Positions 46,659 to 52,909 of a stretch of 64,000 nucleotides of DNA are shown piece by piece. Origin of the DNA: Candidatus Pelearchaeum maunauluense (GTDB taxonomy: Archaea > Thermoproteota > Nitrososphaeria_A > Caldarchaeales > Caldarchaeaceae); contig JANVYQ010000003.1 in assembly GCA_030059675.1 (NCBI GenBank), forward strand, positions 138,822-202,821. Direction: 5' to 3'. How positions within the stretch are numbered: the first letter of the stretch is position 1; each line of letters starts with the position of its first letter. The position numbers were made by a program, and so were the translations under genes. The notes beneath the pieces were generated by a model. That model saw only the letters and a program-made list of their open reading frames with translations, searched no databases and was not told the origin of the DNA.

Positions 46659-46835
46659 TTGGAGAACCTAACACGCCGCGCAGTCCGCGCTATCACCCAC
46701 GTCGGGACCGGCCAAGCCCTCCTAGCGGCCTTCGCAAGCCGTTTTTTGAGGGAGAAAGTCCTAGGCATAACCGCCCACACCTATGTCGCACCAGTAAGAC
46801 AATACACCGAGATTTTAATGGTTACTACTGCGTGA
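46659..46835 (+). CDS. Possible 58-aa leader gene of the SMC operon
   Basis: An open frame from TTG 46659 encodes a basic N-terminal helix and an Ala-rich core (RRAVRAITHVGTGQALLAAF, FLREKVLGITAHTYVAPVRQ). Its TGA overlaps the GTG start of the SMC-like gene (GTGA, 46832-46835), the arrangement of translationally coupled genes. No family recognised, and no ATG/GTG start exists in frame, so it may be a non-coding leader. A TATA-like ctttaagg lies at 46611-46618. Confidence 0.35.
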   Translation: MENLTRRAVRAITHVGTGQALLAAFASRFLREKVLGITAHTYVAPVRQYTEILMVTTA

Positions 46836-48670
46836 GGACTCCGTTATGGCTTGGGGATGACTCTTTAAATCGTGGTCTGGGTGGTTTGGCCGATAGGAGT
46901 GAGAAACGGGCCTTGCAGACGCATGGGGAGGGGCATACGCCTAGGACGTTCATCCGTGAGGTGGTTCTAGAGAACTTCATGTCGCATGAATACTCTAGAA
47001 TCCCGTTTACGCGGGGGCTGAACGTCATAGTAGGCCCAAACGGCGCTGGAAAATCATCAATACTGCTGGGGATTTCCGTAGCGTTGGGGCAGAGCTACAC
47101 GGAGAGGGGTGAGAGGCTCAGCGACCTGGTTAAACGCGGCAGCGAAGCAGCCCGCGTAGCGGTTGTTCTAGACAACACACCAATAAACGGAAAACGCCCA
47201 ATACCCCAATACTCAACAGACACGGTAACTATTACGCGATTCCTAAAGAAGAACGGCGACTACTGGCAATACATAAACAACAGGTTTAAGCCGAAGGCTG
47301 AGGTTGAGCATTTCCTAAGCCAAATAGGAATTAACCCGAACAATATGCTGATAATAATGCACCAGAACATGATTGAACAGTTTGTTGTGCGTGATAGTCG
47401 CGAGAAGCTTTTGCTTATTGAGGAGGCTGTGGGCGCTAGTGGTCTTAGGCAGAGAATTCGCGAGGCTGAGTCTAAGCTCGCAGCGCTGGCTGCTGAGGAG
47501 AAGGTTCTGAAGAAGACGCTGGATGACGCGCGTGCTGCTGTAGAATTCTGGCGTGAGGAGTATGAGAAGCTCACGATACTTAGGCGGCTTAACCAGCGTA
47601 AGGATGAGCTGGAGCGCGAGTATCTATGGGCGTTGGTGAATGAGGCAAAGAAATCACGTGAGCGTGTTGAGTCCACGATTCGGGGAATACAGCAACAATT
47701 GGAGGAGACAGCCCGCGAGGCTGAAGAAACGGACTTGAAGGTTAGGGGGGTTAGGGAGAAGATAACAAGCCTCTTTGATGCAGCGCTCTCAGGCGGCGAA
47801 GACCTACGTGGAAAGCTTGCCGCGCTGCTTGATGAGCTGATAGATAACGCGTCCCTAAGCGGAGCGCTTAGGCAGAAGCTCAAGACAGCTGAGCAGGAGC
47901 TGAAAAGCCTCCGCTATGAGCTGCTCCAGATAGAGAAAGAGCTTCAGGAACGTGTGGAGAATGCTGAGAAACGCGGCCCGCGTGTAGAGACCTCTAGACG
48001 CCATCAAGAAATATACGAGGACATAAAGTCGGTGATGATACAGATAGCTGGGATGGGCAAAGTAACGCCAGAGGCTGAGGATATGTTTCTGCTGGCTGAG
48101 TCCAAGTATCGGGAGACGGAGCTTAAGGCTGGGGAGGTGTCTGAGAACGTGCGACGCGCTCTTGAGGAGGTGGAGTATCGTAAGGAGGTCTGGAGGAGGT
48201 TTCTACGCGAGTTAATAGCTGATGTGGAGCCCCAGTATGATAGCATTCTAAGCAAGGTAGGTGGCCGTGGAAGGATTGAGTTGAAGAATCTTGACGACGT
48301 AGATAGGGCTTCCATAGAGCTGTATGCTGGCTTCAGGGGCGCTGAGCCTACACTTCTGGATGGGCATAGCCAGAGCGGTGGTGAGCGTATAGTCGCTACG
48401 ATGGCTTTCCTACTGGCTCTTCAGCGGCATGTGAAGTCGCCATTCAGGGCTGTGGATGAGTTTGACGTGCATCTAGACCCGCTGAACCGCGAGCGTATAA
48501 TACGTCTCCTCACAGAGACGGCGCGGGAAGATTCGTCGGCACAGTATATCATCATAACGCCTGGAAAGGTCTCCTTCACCGAGGATATGAACGTGGTCAT
48601 AGTGCAGAACGTCTCTGGACGCTCATCGGTAGGCGTTGGTAAGGCTGAGAAGGTGGCTGCCGATGCCTAA
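46832..48670 (+). CDS. Short SMC5/6-like ATPase
   Basis: 612 residues. ATPase lobes: FIREVVLENFMSHEYSRIPF with Walker A VGPNGAGKSSILL (about 68-76), Q-loop MLIIMHQNMIEQF, signature SQSGGERIVATMAFLLALQ (SGGER 515-519), Walker B and D-loop FRAVDEFDVHLDPLNRE and YIIITPGK. QSGGER, the PFR-x-VDE and ITP motifs recall SMC5, and NFMSHE and DEFDV recall SMC6. The arms are short (coils about 205-300 and 345-385), with no normal 150-200 residue hinge and no CxxC zinc hook. Start GTG 46832 or TTG 46886. The kleisin- and KITE-like genes follow with overlaps. Confidence 0.82.
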   Translation: MRTPLWLGDDSLNRGLGGLADRSEKRALQTHGEGHTPRTFIREVVLENFMSHEYSRIPFTRGLNVIVGPNGAGKSSILLGISVALGQSYTERGERLSDLVKRGSEAARVAVVLDNTPINGKRPIPQYSTDTVTITRFLKKNGDYWQYINNRFKPKAEVEHFLSQIGINPNNMLIIMHQNMIEQFVVRDSREKLLLIEEAVGASGLRQRIREAESKLAALAAEEKVLKKTLDDARAAVEFWREEYEKLTILRRLNQRKDELEREYLWALVNEAKKSRERVESTIRGIQQQLEETAREAEETDLKVRGVREKITSLFDAALSGGEDLRGKLAALLDELIDNASLSGALRQKLKTAEQELKSLRYELLQIEKELQERVENAEKRGPRVETSRRHQEIYEDIKSVMIQIAGMGKVTPEAEDMFLLAESKYRETELKAGEVSENVRRALEEVEYRKEVWRRFLRELIADVEPQYDSILSKVGGRGRIELKNLDDVDRASIELYAGFRGAEPTLLDGHSQSGGERIVATMAFLLALQRHVKSPFRAVDEFDVHLDPLNRERIIRLLTETAREDSSAQYIIITPGKVSFTEDMNVVIVQNVSGRSSVGVGKAEKVAADA

Positions 48671-49439
48671 CAAGCAGAGAACAATAACGCGGGAGGAGTT
48701 GCTTAGAATAATACAGCTATGCGAGTCCGTGGAGAAGTCTGGTATAGACCCCTTCACGGTTAATGTTAGGGAGCTGCTTCAGAAGCTGCGCTCAATCTTG
48801 GAATCTTCCAGGGATTTGGAGACCGTAGTGCTGGATGCGGAGACACTCTACAGGGTTGCGTTGGTTATCGCCTTACAGCACCGCTGGCTTCTGGAGAAGG
48901 CCTCAAATCTATTCGTGGATGCCCAGATTATAGCGGCTAGAATACTAGCCGCCGATAAACGCGCTTTGGCGAGCTGTCTAGCTAGGAGCTGGCGGCCTAT
49001 AGTGAGCGGAGAGCAGCTCACGAAGAGGATGTTCATAGCTGGGCTTGAGTATTTCCTCAGCCTGCCGCCCAGGGCTGGGCGTGAGCGGAGGCTACTGCTC
49101 GGAGCTGGCGAGGAGCTTCAGATAGATGAAGAAGGGCTGCTTGACAGGTTTCGTCAGCGTGATGTCCTTGAGAGCGAGATAAGAAACATGCATAGAGAGC
49201 TTCTGGAGAGGCGCGAGGATGATGGCGGGCTGGATTATTGGTCGTTCATCTCGCTTGAGGGCGATGAGCGGCGTGTTGAGAGGGCTTACGTCCTCGCGTT
49301 CATAGTTAGCGAAGGACTGGCGGAGATAAAGAGGAATCCTATAACTGGTGAGGTGCGCATATACCCGTTGGAGAGTAAGATTGAGAGGAGCAACCCGACA
49401 TCTCTGGCTATAGCTGTAAGAGGCAGGGAAGGGATTTGA
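48663..49439 (+). CDS. Nse4-like kleisin candidate
   Basis: 258 residues from ATG 48663, overlapping the SMC-like gene by 8 nt. The C-terminal 60 residues contain LDYWSFISLEGDERRVERAY followed by VLAFIVSEGLAEI and TGEVRI, very like the Nse4 C-terminal winged helix (F-x-F-V, a short ERTVEN-like helix, LSFLVRDG, then an acidic-basic wing). The N-terminal helices (VVLDAETLYRVALVIALQHR) fit the kleisin helix that binds the SMC neck. Kleisins bridge SMC heads. The call rests on pattern and operon position and needs a profile search. Confidence 0.65.
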   Translation: MPNKQRTITREELLRIIQLCESVEKSGIDPFTVNVRELLQKLRSILESSRDLETVVLDAETLYRVALVIALQHRWLLEKASNLFVDAQIIAARILAADKRALASCLARSWRPIVSGEQLTKRMFIAGLEYFLSLPPRAGRERRLLLGAGEELQIDEEGLLDRFRQRDVLESEIRNMHRELLERREDDGGLDYWSFISLEGDERRVERAYVLAFIVSEGLAEIKRNPITGEVRIYPLESKIERSNPTSLAIAVRGREGI

Positions 49440-49441
49440 GT

Positions 49442-50065
49442 ATGGGTGAGTCTGAGCAGAGCAAGGCTGGCCGTAGGCTCGCCATAGCTACTGCCATGCT
49501 TCTCTTCTCCAGCCACCGCCTCCCTGGGGTTAGGGGCTACGAGCTACGCCGCCGCCTTGGAAAAAACTACCTAAAGATAATAGACACGCTCAACCATAGG
49601 CTTAGCCCACTAGGACTCAGGGTTAAGGTTGTTTTTGAGGGAGACAATGAACAGCCGTCGGAGGAGGATTTTGACAAGGCGCGTTTCTTCATAACACTAA
49701 GCGAGCCTCTATCCCTCTCAGACATAGTTGCCGCTGGCTGGAGGATTGACGACCTAGCAATACTATCAGCAACTCTTGCCTATCTCTTCTCGCGGGGTGG
49801 AAAGGCGCATCAGAACGAGGTTACGGAGCTTCTGGAGGCCAAGTTCCCAAAGTGGCGTATAGAGTCTGCGATGGAGCGCTTCACCAGACGCGGCTACCTA
49901 CACAAAGACGAGGACAACATGATATACATAGGCTGTAGAACATTCGCGGAGGTTGACCAGAAAGAGCTGGTTAAAGCGATAACCGAGATAAGCCCAGAGC
50001 TGGCTGGGACAAACCAAGGCTCTACTGAAACATCTTCTGGAGAGCCTCCTTCTCCCTCTCCATAA
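49442..50065 (+). CDS. Nse3/MAGE-like tandem winged-helix (KITE) protein
   Basis: 208 residues. Winged helix A: RGYELRRRLGKNYLKIIDTL, then LSPLGLRVKVVFE, as in the MAGE homology domain. Winged helix B: DLAILSATLAYLFSRGGKAH, then YIGCRTFAEVDQKELVKAI, parallel to the MAGE ending with a G-x-R-[AS]-[YF]-x-E-[TV]-x-K signature. MAGE/Nse3, ScpB and MukE belong to the KITE class that binds kleisins. ATG 49442 follows the kleisin stop by 2 nt; TTG 49436 would overlap it by 4. The 3' end overlaps lhr on the other strand by 44 nt. Confidence 0.65.
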   Translation: MGESEQSKAGRRLAIATAMLLFSSHRLPGVRGYELRRRLGKNYLKIIDTLNHRLSPLGLRVKVVFEGDNEQPSEEDFDKARFFITLSEPLSLSDIVAAGWRIDDLAILSATLAYLFSRGGKAHQNEVTELLEAKFPKWRIESAMERFTRRGYLHKDEDNMIYIGCRTFAEVDQKELVKAITEISPELAGTNQGSTETSSGEPPSPSP

Positions 50066-52886
50066 TAAGCTCAACAAGCCTAACCCCAAGTGAGCTCTCT
50101 TTCTCAAGTATCTCCTCTGCGGTTTTCGTGTCTATGTATTTGCTCGCCAGTACGAATGCCGCTGCCTTGCCATATTTCTCCACGAGCTTCGCTGTCTTTA
50201 TCGCTTCGCGCCGTAGTTCCTTCTCTTTCCTGTTTATCGGCTTCCCGCGCCTCGCTACCAGGCCATAAACTTCCTCCTGCTCCGCTTTTAGCGCCCCCAG
50301 CGAACGTGAGCCACAGACCGGGCATGTGGGAGTGTTGCTAATATCCTTAACAGCTAGGCGCTCCAGATACTCAAAACAAGACGTGCATACGAGCGTTAGC
50401 GGCTCGTTGTTAAGCCTCCCCCTAACGGCATTCGCCACCAGCCTGTGTATCCTATCAGAGGATATAACGTCAATATCATATTCATGTCGTTGTAGCGTTA
50501 GCCTGGCTAGTGGGGACGGGCTCTCGGCCAGCCGCGCAGTATGGAGGGAAACCAGACCCTCCTCAATCCTCCTAAGGAGCATTAGGGCAGACTCGCTGTC
50601 AAAGTCTTCAAACAGGGTGTATTTGAGAGCCTCCTCATAAACCGCTGTTCCCTTCAGAGTTTCAACCAGCTTCTCGGCGCTTATGTCCAGTATGCTCGCC
50701 TCTCTGCTTATCACACCCATCTTACGCGCAGCATGAACAAGCCTACGCTTGAAGAGGCTTGATGCCTCCACAGCAGACCTTACATAGCCATGAAAATCTC
50801 CTACGGCTAGCGTGTGGAGTAGCTCTCTAACCATCTCGGCGTTTATATGCCTAGACTTGAAGATTATACGGTAAGCATCTTGCTGCAAGCCTATGGGGGC
50901 GCCTACCCTTCTTGAGAGCTCATAACCCACCACGCGCGCTATCGTCCTATTAACGCGCAAGCCGCCGTGTATATGTAGGATGACGTAGTCGTAGGTCTCC
51001 TCTATCAGGACGCTCCTATCGCTTGGCACGGGTATTCCCATCTTGATATGCTCCCTAACTTCCCGCAGGCTTTTCTCTAGGAGAGCCGTGTCTGTCTTAT
51101 ACTCGCGGGCAAGTTCCTCTAGTATCGTATTCTCATCACCCCTGATGTATGCTTCGGCGTATCTCCTCCTTATCCTGCCCACCTCCTCAGCGACCTCCAG
51201 GGGAACTGGTATCTCATCCCCAACCCATGACGGAACAGCTCCCTCTAGGCTATCCAGCGGCGAGACGTAGATTCTCTCACCAGCAGCGTGGATTATCTCC
51301 CAAGCCTTTCCCATCAGGATGAACCTAGAGCCAGGCTCGCCATGCTCAGCCACGAACTCCTCATCAAGTATCCCAACAGGCTCCCCAGTAGATTCGGAGA
51401 CGACCAGGTATTGCCTCTCCTCTGGAATCATGGAGAGATTCCCAAAATAGTAGTTATACAGCTCGGACTGTTTCGCTGGCCGTGTTATTGTCCTGCTCTC
51501 CGCCTGCCAGCCAGCTATCTCTATACTACTCATGTGTTGAACAACCTTAGTAACGTCCTCCTCACTCAACTCCTCAAAGCAGTATGAGCGTCTGAATATG
51601 CGCAGAACATCATCTACCGTAATGCTTCCCCGCTCTATTAACAGCCCTGCTATCTGATGCATGAGCACGTCGTAGCTGTTTTTAGGAGTCCTCACCTGCT
51701 CTATCTCATCACTGTAGGCGCGGCGCGCTATTACGAGAGCTTCAAGAGCATCATCCGAGTCCATTACTATTACTACACCCCTGGCCAGGCCGCCTATCCT
51801 ATGGCCGCTTCTACCTACGCGCTGGACTAGACGCGTAACCTCGCGCGGCGAGTTATACTGTATGCATAGCTCTATACGTCCAACGTCAATACCCATCTCC
51901 AGAGACGAGGTGCATACTACGCCTATCAGCTTCCCAGTCTTAAGAGCCTGCTCGGCGCCTATCCGTGTTGGCCTAGCTAGAGAGCCGTGGTGGATGCCTA
52001 TTGAAACGTTCTCGTCCCACGCCCTAAACCTGTTGGTGAGAATCTCTGCCAGCGGCCTTGTGTTTGTGAAGATTAGCGTTGATTCATGCTGCTCCACGAG
52101 GCGGCGTATGGTGCTTAGCCTGGCCGCCACGTCGGGCAGTATTGAGAGCTGCTCTGCTAGAGTGTAGTCGCCGCTACTCGGCTCTGGATAAGCTACCTGT
52201 ATTGAGAGGCTTCGCGCAACAGGCACGCGTACAATCTCGCATTTCCTTCCACTACCAACCAAGAAACGCGCCACAATCTCAGGACTCCCCACGGTGGCGG
52301 AGAGGCCTATCCTCTGATAGGGTTTCCCAACAATCTCTTCAAGCCTCTCCAAACCTAACGAGAGCTGCACACCCCGCTTATCTGTCGCAAGCTCATGAAC
52401 TTCATCCACAACCACATATTCAACGAACCGTAGATACTGTCTGAGTATTCTTGCCGTTAGCAGTATCTGGAGCGTCTCTGGAGTTGTTATCAATATGTCT
52501 GGAGGCTGGAGAGTTTGTATCCGCCTCTCTCGCGCGAGTGTGTCGCCGTGTCTTATGGCTACGCTCATGTCAAGCCTGCTAGCCCACCACTCTATCCTAT
52601 CGGAGAGGTCGCGGTTAAGCGCCCTCAGGGGGGTTATGTAGAGAAGCCTGACACCACGCCGCTCGCCGCTCAGCACCATCTTACTCAGCGCAGGCAGGAG
52701 AGCGGCTTCGGTCTTCCCAGTCCCAGTAGGAGCCATGAGCAGCAAGTTATCGCCGCGTAAGATTATGGGTATGCTCTCAATCTGGGGCTCCGTCAATACG
52801 CTAAACTTCTCGCTAAACGCCTCTCTAACAGGCTTAGCCAACATCTCAAGAATCTGCTGGCTCCGCAACCTAGTCCAGTCATCCAT
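50022..52886 (-). CDS. Lhr-family superfamily 2 helicase
   Basis: 954 residues. Motifs: LLMAPTGTGKTEAALLPAL (I), TPLRALNRDL (Ia), VVDEVHEL (II), GLSATVG (III), GVVCTSSLEMGIDVG and VQRVGRSGHRIGG (V, VI), then the winged-helix and Lhr-specific beta domains, and a C-terminal zinc finger (CTSCFEYL, CPVCGSRSLG). Lhr enzymes unwind branched or RNA-DNA substrates in repair. ATG 52886 is preferred; GTG/TTG codons just upstream are in frame. It converges on the SMC5/6-like operon with a 44-nt overlap. Confidence 0.93.
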   Translation of the reverse strand: MDDWTRLRSQQILEMLAKPVREAFSEKFSVLTEPQIESIPIILRGDNLLLMAPTGTGKTEAALLPALSKMVLSGERRGVRLLYITPLRALNRDLSDRIEWWASRLDMSVAIRHGDTLARERRIQTLQPPDILITTPETLQILLTARILRQYLRFVEYVVVDEVHELATDKRGVQLSLGLERLEEIVGKPYQRIGLSATVGSPEIVARFLVGSGRKCEIVRVPVARSLSIQVAYPEPSSGDYTLAEQLSILPDVAARLSTIRRLVEQHESTLIFTNTRPLAEILTNRFRAWDENVSIGIHHGSLARPTRIGAEQALKTGKLIGVVCTSSLEMGIDVGRIELCIQYNSPREVTRLVQRVGRSGHRIGGLARGVVIVMDSDDALEALVIARRAYSDEIEQVRTPKNSYDVLMHQIAGLLIERGSITVDDVLRIFRRSYCFEELSEEDVTKVVQHMSSIEIAGWQAESRTITRPAKQSELYNYYFGNLSMIPEERQYLVVSESTGEPVGILDEEFVAEHGEPGSRFILMGKAWEIIHAAGERIYVSPLDSLEGAVPSWVGDEIPVPLEVAEEVGRIRRRYAEAYIRGDENTILEELAREYKTDTALLEKSLREVREHIKMGIPVPSDRSVLIEETYDYVILHIHGGLRVNRTIARVVGYELSRRVGAPIGLQQDAYRIIFKSRHINAEMVRELLHTLAVGDFHGYVRSAVEASSLFKRRLVHAARKMGVISREASILDISAEKLVETLKGTAVYEEALKYTLFEDFDSESALMLLRRIEEGLVSLHTARLAESPSPLARLTLQRHEYDIDVISSDRIHRLVANAVRGRLNNEPLTLVCTSCFEYLERLAVKDISNTPTCPVCGSRSLGALKAEQEEVYGLVARRGKPINRKEKELRREAIKTAKLVEKYGKAAAFVLASKYIDTKTAEEILEKESSLGVRLVELIMEREKEALQKMFQ

Positions 52887-52909
52887 AACAGCCACCAACT
52901 ACGGCGCAG

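What the first reader, a model, noticed from the sequence alone, without database searches (positions are those of the whole stretch)
46659..50065. Compact SMC5/6-like operon: ATPase, Nse4-like kleisin, Nse3/MAGE-like KITE
Three coupled genes encode the core parts of an SMC complex. The ATPase carries SMC5-type (QSGGER, PFR-VDE, ITPGK) and SMC6-type (NFMSHE, DEFDV) head motifs; the next protein ends in a domain like Nse4; the third matches the double winged helix of MAGE/Nse3. Eukaryotic SMC5/6 is the only SMC complex whose KITE subunits are MAGE-like, so an archaeal operon with this trio would be an ancestral minimal version. SMC5/6-related archaeal ATPases have been noted before; the co-encoded kleisin and MAGE-like partners are what I find most worth testing. 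That they form one complex is inference.
Basis: partly seen in the sequence, partly recalled or inferred. Interest (0 to 1): 0.93.

Follow-up and report, generated by a model that had tools for sequence, protein, structure and literature searches.

The report
Compact archaeal SMC5/6-like complex operon
An archaeon and many of its relatives carry a three-gene operon whose proteins resemble the core parts of SMC5/6, a eukaryotic machine that guards DNA, but in a cut-down form that apparently lacks the usual hinge and likely resembles that machine's ancestor.

Summary
Window 46913-50065 (+) encodes an SMC-family ATPase (585 aa), a kleisin (258 aa) and a KITE (209 aa) with overlapping genes. Against solved structures the ATPase family profile ranks SMC6 and SMC5 above every other SMC. 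The kleisin family matches Nse4. The KITE family matches both Nse1 and MAGE/Nse3 by sequence, and its model fits Nse1-Nse3-Nse4 structures best. Of 80 KITE loci, 77 have the kleisin adjacent and 70 the ATPase too; kleisin and KITE co-occur in 154 of 398 phylum genomes. I read it as an SMC5/6-type DNA clamp; complex formation is untested. Archaeal "SMC5/6-related" ATPases and archaeal KITEs are in print, and a 2024 preprint on prokaryotic roots of SMC complexes, which I could not read, may cover part of this.

The parts
46913..48670 (+). SMC5/6-type ATPase, 585 aa (ORF open from GTG 46832; TTG 46913 is the likely start)
   Evidence: SMC_N 4.3e-35; family profile ranks SMC6/SMC5 first in PDB; start from L001 indel and 585-aa homologues
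46973..46990 (+). NFMSHE, SMC6-like N-terminal head motif
   Evidence: NFMCH in both SMC6 chains printed
47033..47059 (+). Walker A GPNGAGKSS
   Evidence: G68 P69 N70 G71 G73 K74 S75 invariant in A3
47468..48148 (+). coiled-coil arms (227 residues for both arms together, apparently no room for a full SMC hinge; no cysteine, so no zinc hook)
   Evidence: stretch between the head blocks used; cysteine count 0; arm-tip alignment; coil and arm length are inference
48371..48388 (+). ABC signature QSGGER (as in SMC5)
48440..48481 (+). Walker B/D-loop PFRAVDEFDVHLDP, combining SMC5 'PFR-VDE' with SMC6 'DEFDV'
48663..49439 (+). Nse4-like kleisin, 258 aa
   Evidence: A4 profile hits Nse4 8e-6 and EID3 5.6e-5 in PDB; Nse4_C in 36 of 47 members at E<=0.1
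48816..48911 (+). long conserved helix near the kleisin N-terminus, candidate neck-binding helix (inferred)
   Evidence: AF2 helix H51-82; holds 9 of the 30 invariant columns of A1; D57 and Q71 invariant also in A4
49164..49370 (+). C-terminal winged helix of the kleisin (cap-binding domain by analogy)
49436..50065 (+). KITE (tandem winged helix) related to Nse1 and Nse3/MAGE, 209 aa
50022..52898 (-). Lhr-type helicase, convergent neighbour (not claimed as a subunit)
   Evidence: DEAD, Helicase_C, WH_Lhr, DEAD_assoc; convergent in 35 of 75 loci with at least 900 bases downstream

Best explanation
These three genes encode an SMC-family ATPase, a kleisin and a KITE of the SMC5/6 type, which are predicted to form one complex that clamps DNA in an ATP-driven cycle and likely helps repair or protect the chromosome. 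Shown: the family matches, the gene order and its conservation, intact Walker A, signature and Walker B motifs, and no cysteine or Pfam hinge match in the ATPase. Inferred: two ATPase copies join head to head on ATP; the kleisin's N-terminal helix binds the neck of one and its C-terminal winged helix the cap of the other; a KITE homodimer sits on the kleisin linker and presses DNA onto the engaged heads, as Nse3/Nse1 do. Without a hinge, the two ATPases would be held by the kleisin and by ATP, perhaps by the arm tips, giving a short clamp rather than a roughly 50-nm ring. The same genome has a separate canonical SMC - short kleisin - ScpB operon, so bulk chromosome folding need not be its task.
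For: ATPase: the first 10 of 53 PDB rows are SMC6 and SMC5 (230 to 176 bits), next a prokaryotic Smc at 157, SMC2 at 140; C-head alone: SMC5 112 and 106, best SMC6 80, best other Smc 64; canonical SMC of the same genome, searched as a single sequence: none of 46 rows is SMC5/6. Kleisin: Nse4 8e-6, EID3 5.6e-5, ScpA only 0.7; Nse4_C over Pfam's cut-off in 13 of 398 genomes and at E<=1e-3 in 56, 0 of 14 controls; first two fold rows are Nse4. KITE: 7 of the 10 fold rows at E<=0.001 are SMC5/6 complexes or MAGE-G1/NSE1, the other 3 MukE. Linkage: kleisin adjacent 77 of 80, ATPase too 70 of 80. Co-occurrence: KITE 156 and kleisin 156 of 398, 154 shared. Same genome: canonical SMC, ScpB 1.8e-36, and a Rad50-like start beside an Mre11-like gene. 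Experiments in a paper give the Nse4 kleisin the major role in bridging SMC5 and SMC6 heads (PMC7297730, passages).
Confidence: 0.78

Rival explanations
1. It is a genuine SMC-kleisin-KITE complex, but a separate archaeal branch whose likeness to SMC5/6 reflects shared old features (KITE use, ATPase head type) rather than direct ancestry of eukaryotic SMC5/6.
For: KITE has no sequence hit to Nse1/Nse3 chains; N-head does not prefer SMC5/6; hinge and second KITE apparently missing; KITE model also matches MukE, Wadjet and ScpAB chains.
Against: Whole-length ATPase profile and C-head prefer SMC5/6; Nse4_C matches; PMC9389158 (passages) reports archaeal 'SMC5/6-related' SMC in one sub-clade with eukaryotic SMC5 and SMC6 at 100% bootstrap, though I could not check that its sequences are this family.
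Confidence: 0.35
2. It is a defence or DNA-sensing system of the Wadjet/Lamassu kind that uses the SMC-kleisin-KITE core against foreign DNA.
For: ATPase has PADLOC hits (mad3 3.8e-33, LmuB 2.6e-21), as SMC-type heads in general might; Smc5/6 and Wadjet act on extrachromosomal DNA (PMC10586767, passages).
Against: No PADLOC hit for kleisin or KITE at E<=10; no nuclease gene recognised in the operon; near-universal in its class (42 of 44) and flanked here by housekeeping genes (eL31, eIF6, prefoldin, an SRP54-type GTPase, Lhr-type helicase), unlike patchy defence islands.
Confidence: 0.1
3. Rad50/ASRP-like end-processing ATPase, with the winged-helix proteins as transcription regulators that happen to be neighbours.
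For: Short arms and no hinge, like ASRP; Rad50_Sulf 6.4e-21 and ASRP 4e-13 hits; generic winged-helix families such as TrmB also match KITE members weakly (best 0.0018).
Against: SMC_prok_A scores far higher (1.5e-57); no cysteine, so no zinc hook; a Rad50-like start lies elsewhere in the genome beside an Mre11-like gene (recognised by eye); kleisin and KITE resemble SMC partners; linkage is widely conserved.
Confidence: 0.04

Closest known systems
Eukaryotic SMC5/6 core (Smc5, Smc6, Nse4, Nse1, Nse3)
   Same: ATPase closest to SMC5/SMC6 over its whole length and in the C-head; Nse4-like kleisin; KITE fold closest to Nse1/Nse3 complexes.
   Different: One ATPase gene of about 585 aa instead of two of about 1,100 (chain lengths); hinge apparently absent; one KITE gene, no RING; no further gene in the operon, and Nse2, Nse5 and Nse6 were not searched for.
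Archaeal 'SMC5/6-related' SMC (Yoshinaga and Inagaki 2021, cited in PMC9389158)
   Same: An archaeal ATPase group tied to SMC5/6; very likely includes this family (not checked).
   Different: The passages read describe ATPases only; the word 'kleisin' has 0 occurrences in PMC9389158. The 2021 paper itself is not held.
KITE superfamily (Palecek and Gruber 2015)
   Different: I do not know whether this archaeal family is among them.
Smc-ScpAB (canonical SMC - kleisin - KITE)
   Same: Three-part logic and a KITE partner; the same genome has such an operon (L118).
   Different: That SMC has 1127 aa; partner profiles do not match (KITE vs ScpB probability 0.4%; kleisin vs the short kleisin 14.6%).
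MukBEF / MksBEF / Wadjet JetABC
   Same: KITE-based SMC complexes; MukE and Wadjet chains resemble the KITE model.
   Different: Matches weaker than the best Nse1-Nse3-Nse4 match; no nuclease gene recognised here.
ASRP / coalescin ClsN
   Same: Short archaeal SMC-family ATPase; ClsN is 68 kDa with about 350 residues of coil (PMC9764264, passage).
   Different: Most ASRPs have a zinc hook (PMC9389158, passage); this ATPase has no cysteine and has kleisin and KITE neighbours.

Membership tests
SMC5/6 | SMC ATPase of SMC5/6 type | tested here: met
   First 10 of 53 PDB rows SMC6/SMC5; C-head. N-head alone does not discriminate
SMC5/6 | Two different SMC subunits (SMC5 and SMC6) | tested here: not met
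   The A3 profile finds one compact ATPase gene in the genome; the other matches are the canonical SMC, a Rad50-like start at a contig end beside an Mre11-like gene, and two at 22 bits; assembly 94% complete
SMC5/6 | SMC hinge domain | tested here: not met
   585 aa; SMC6 residues 471-665 between the two matched stretches have no counterpart; PF06470 hits nothing in this gene at E<=10, but hits the canonical SMC only at 0.024, a weak control, with 12 of 14 control genomes ringing. No structure of the ATPase was predicted
SMC5/6 | Nse4-type kleisin | tested here: met
   fold match to Nse4 first in rank but poor in TM
SMC5/6 | KITE subunits of Nse1/Nse3 (MAGE) type | tested here: met
   sequence match weak, none in PDB
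SMC5/6 | Two distinct KITE subunits, Nse1 and Nse3 | tested here: not met
   One KITE match in each of the 42 matching class genomes and in 154 of 156 in the phylum sample; G099 and G326 have two, in G099 two neighbouring pieces
SMC5/6 | RING domain on Nse1 | tested here: not met
   Window KITE has one cysteine; none of the 13 KITE frames printed has a cysteine-rich tail (read by eye)
SMC5/6 | Nse2, Nse5 and Nse6 subunits | not tested
   No search was made for them
SMC5/6 | Subunits assemble into one complex | not testable with these tools
   No co-folding or interaction tool
Smc-ScpAB | ScpA (PF02616) and ScpB (PF04079) partners | tested here: not met
   No PF02616 or PF04079 hit to the window kleisin and KITE at E<=10; ScpB lies elsewhere in the genome
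Rad50/ASRP | Zinc hook (CXXC) at the coil tip | tested here: not met
   0 cysteines in the ATPase
Wadjet | JetABC core plus JetD nuclease | tested here: not met
   No PADLOC hit for kleisin or KITE at E<=10; no further + strand gene recognised between eL31 and the Lhr-type helicase

The most novel reading that the evidence does not exclude
A hinge-less, short-armed SMC5/6: a homodimeric ATPase carrying SMC5 and SMC6 features together, an Nse4-like kleisin and one KITE that is forerunner to both Nse1 and Nse3. It would be the living pre-duplication form of SMC5/6, and show that an SMC-kleisin-KITE machine can clamp DNA with no hinge ring at all.
Probability: 0.45. Interest if true: 0.83.

Novelty: new variant of a known kind. 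Interest (0 to 1): 0.68.

Why it matters
The origin of the eukaryotic SMC5/6 complex is open. A three-gene archaeal version would give a minimal system to purify, and would let one ask directly whether the hinge, the ring and the second KITE are needed for DNA clamping or loop extrusion. It would also help date the SMC5/SMC6 and Nse1/Nse3 duplications relative to eukaryotic origins.

Tried and rejected
Rejected: KITE as ScpB, kleisin as the genome's short ScpA-like kleisin (14.6% probability, 54 columns in the winged-helix region), defence system (and context), Rad50-type.

Led nowhere: PDB sequence search with the KITE profile; the structural lists are second looks at Foldseek's hits, and families not listed there are not excluded. 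A tree with eukaryotic SMC sequences was not made, since the tools give such sequences only as printed alignment pieces. Asgard archaea could not be reached: one search failed, and ('relatives', 121 genomes) showed only genomes of the same phylum among the rows listed (27 rows without a match are not listed). The genome-contig scan kept only the best 80 of 260 loci, so lineages further out are unseen. One search listed 120 of 3410 ATPase relatives, and its candidates were limited in length. No structure of the ATPase was predicted, as both jobs went to kleisin and KITE.

Literature: in the rows listed I saw no held paper on an archaeal Nse4/KITE operon. The library has no bioRxiv preprints and lacks most subscription papers. 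Van Hooff et al. [quoted passage not shown] It may already describe this; I recall its subject, not its content. Public databases already carry hints: two KITE relatives are named MAGE-domain proteins (P0101, P0169), and single relatives carry precomputed PF08743, PF01454 or PF07574.

Recalled, from no call: which organism a PDB chain comes from (human, yeast), that EID3 is an NSE4 paralogue, which chains of the structures are KITEs, the position of the SMC6 hinge, the 50-nm ring and 0.15 nm per helix residue. The Rad50 and Mre11 likeness was recognised by eye.
Full report
What is there. The window lies in a genome of 1.79 Mb in 21 contigs, 94% complete. Its closest named relative in the fetched set is Candidatus Pelearchaeum sp. 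(L001), a genus that NCBI files under Candidatus Caldarchaeales. Between eL31-eIF6-prefoldin-SRP54-type GTPase on the minus strand and an Lhr-type helicase on the minus strand lie three coupled plus-strand genes. The ATPase ORF opens at 46832, but TTG 46913 is the likelier start, because L001 carries a one-base indel just upstream and 585-aa homologues begin there.

The ATPase. Its family profile (A3, 42 sequences) was run against all PDB chains. The first ten of 53 rows are SMC6 and SMC5, at 230 to 176 bits. Then come prokaryotic Smc at 157, SMC2 at 140, SMC1 at 124, SMC3 at 117 and SMC4 at 104. The C-terminal head alone prefers SMC5 (112 and 106 bits) over one SMC6 (80), prokaryotic Smc (64) and the other SMC6 (60). 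The N-terminal head alone does not prefer SMC5/6: SMC2 94, SMC6 88 and 67, SMC5 84 and 50. As a control, the canonical 1127-aa SMC of the same genome, searched as a single sequence, finds no SMC5/6 chain among 46 rows at E <= 1e-10. The protein combines SMC5 motifs (QSGGER, PFR-VDE, ITP) with SMC6 ones (NFM-H, DEFDV), checked against printed alignments. A conserved stretch in the C-terminal arm (GPRVETSR--QEI) lines up with 'ERIEVEKSASILDKEI' of an SMC6 chain.

No hinge, by sequence. The 120 listed homologues (of 3410 found) have 535 to 636 aa. In the 80 loci, the 59 ATPase frames not cut by a contig start have 580 to 741 codons stop to stop, against about 1,100 for SMC5 or SMC6 chains. The profile matches one SMC6 at 44-470 and 666-1056 and leaves 471-665, the hinge region, without a counterpart; within the coil the two matched stretches reuse the same profile positions, as coils do. 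Pfam's SMC_hinge matches nothing in this gene even at E 10, though it catches the genome's canonical SMC only weakly (0.024), with 12 of 14 control genomes ringing. There is no cysteine, hence no zinc hook. The two arms together have 227 residues, roughly 17 nm per arm (inference). I did not predict its structure.

Conservation. Of 80 KITE loci kept from 260, 77 have the kleisin adjacent on the same strand and 70 also the ATPase adjacent to it; a looser count that asks only for the ATPase upstream on the same strand gives 71, the extra one being L021 with a gap of 2.5 kb. Misses: L006, L036, L052 and L070 end at contig ends; L034 and L043 have neither gene (L043 is genome G011 by its contig length, where ATPase and kleisin sit together on another contig); L037, L041 and L076 lack the ATPase though the contig goes on. 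By record title the loci come from Caldarchaeales, Bathyarchaeota, Methanosuratincola and Methanomethylicota, Hecatellales and others. Across 398 genomes of the phylum the KITE is in 156 and the kleisin in 156, of which 154 are the same (G010 and G390 KITE only, G012 and G160 kleisin only); 240 have neither. I did not count linkage in that sample. A convergent Lhr-type helicase follows in 35 of the 75 loci with at least 900 bases downstream, within 300 bases in 24, in several lineages by title. That suggests an old gene order and may hint at a shared task; it is not evidence for a subunit.

The same genome also has a canonical SMC (1127 aa), a 143-aa kleisin-like protein and ScpB in a row (L118); PF02616 ScpA is not detected in the genome (9 of 14 controls ring). 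A Rad50-like start lies beside an Mre11-like gene at a contig end (by eye). So two SMC-kleisin-KITE operons stand in one genome.

How it likely works. ATP joins two heads; the kleisin bridges neck and cap; the KITE pair holds DNA on the heads. In eukaryotic SMC5/6 the kleisin has the major role in bridging the heads (PMC7297730, passages), and DNA is clamped mostly by the Nse3 KITE (PMC10512200, passages). A hinge-less version would depend on the kleisin for cohesion. All of this is inference from family knowledge.

What is known. Archaeal 'SMC5/6-related' ATPases have been placed with eukaryotic SMC5/6 (PMC9389158, passages, citing Yoshinaga and Inagaki 2021, not held). KITE proteins have been reported in archaea (Palecek and Gruber 2015, title seen in a reference list). 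Archaeal Smc-ScpA was described as generally lacking a KITE (PMC7055376, passages). A preprint on the prokaryotic roots of SMC complexes (van Hooff et al. 2024) exists and I saw only its title. In the rows listed I saw no held paper on this operon or the missing hinge, but preprints and most subscription papers are outside that library.

Verdict. It is a new variant of a known kind: an SMC5/6-type operon in reduced, apparently hinge-less form. It is not a full member of SMC5/6 as defined in eukaryotes, since the second SMC, the hinge, the second KITE and the RING were tested and not met.

Noticed in passing
L118 1610-6211 (G000 C9): Canonical SMC, a 143-aa kleisin-like protein (Rad21_Rec8 0.0052 only) and ScpB (1.8e-36) stand in a row; ScpA is not found by PF02616 in the genome.
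   Followed up: partly
window 50022-52898: Lhr-type helicase overlaps the KITE end by 44 bases and is the convergent neighbour in 35 of 75 loci, in several lineages by record title.
   Followed up: partly
L037 and L041, upstream of 5111: The ATPase gene is missing beside kleisin and KITE; the kleisin frame is preceded in frame by a stretch (VIAVQTVEDKS in L037) that resembles the last strand of the ATPase, as if the rest was lost.
   Followed up: partly
L129 3112-6399 (G021): Two ORFs that look by eye like pilin or archaellin genes lie between kleisin and KITE, and the gene upstream of the kleisin is not the ATPase.
   Followed up: partly
window 46659-46835: A short ORF between eL31 and the ATPase; its DNA is largely conserved in L001; no Pfam hit.
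   Followed up: partly
window 46863-46870: CTTTAAAT about 45 bases before TTG 46913 resembles an archaeal TATA box (read by eye).
   Followed up: no
G020, G021 and P0056: The kleisins of the same order with Nse4_C over the curated cut-off come from G020 and G021, genomes where kleisin and KITE are 1.9 kb apart; P0056 is nearly the same protein by eye.
   Followed up: no
L119 3-1489 (G000 C15): Rad50-like start and an Mre11-like gene at a contig end (by eye).
   Followed up: partly
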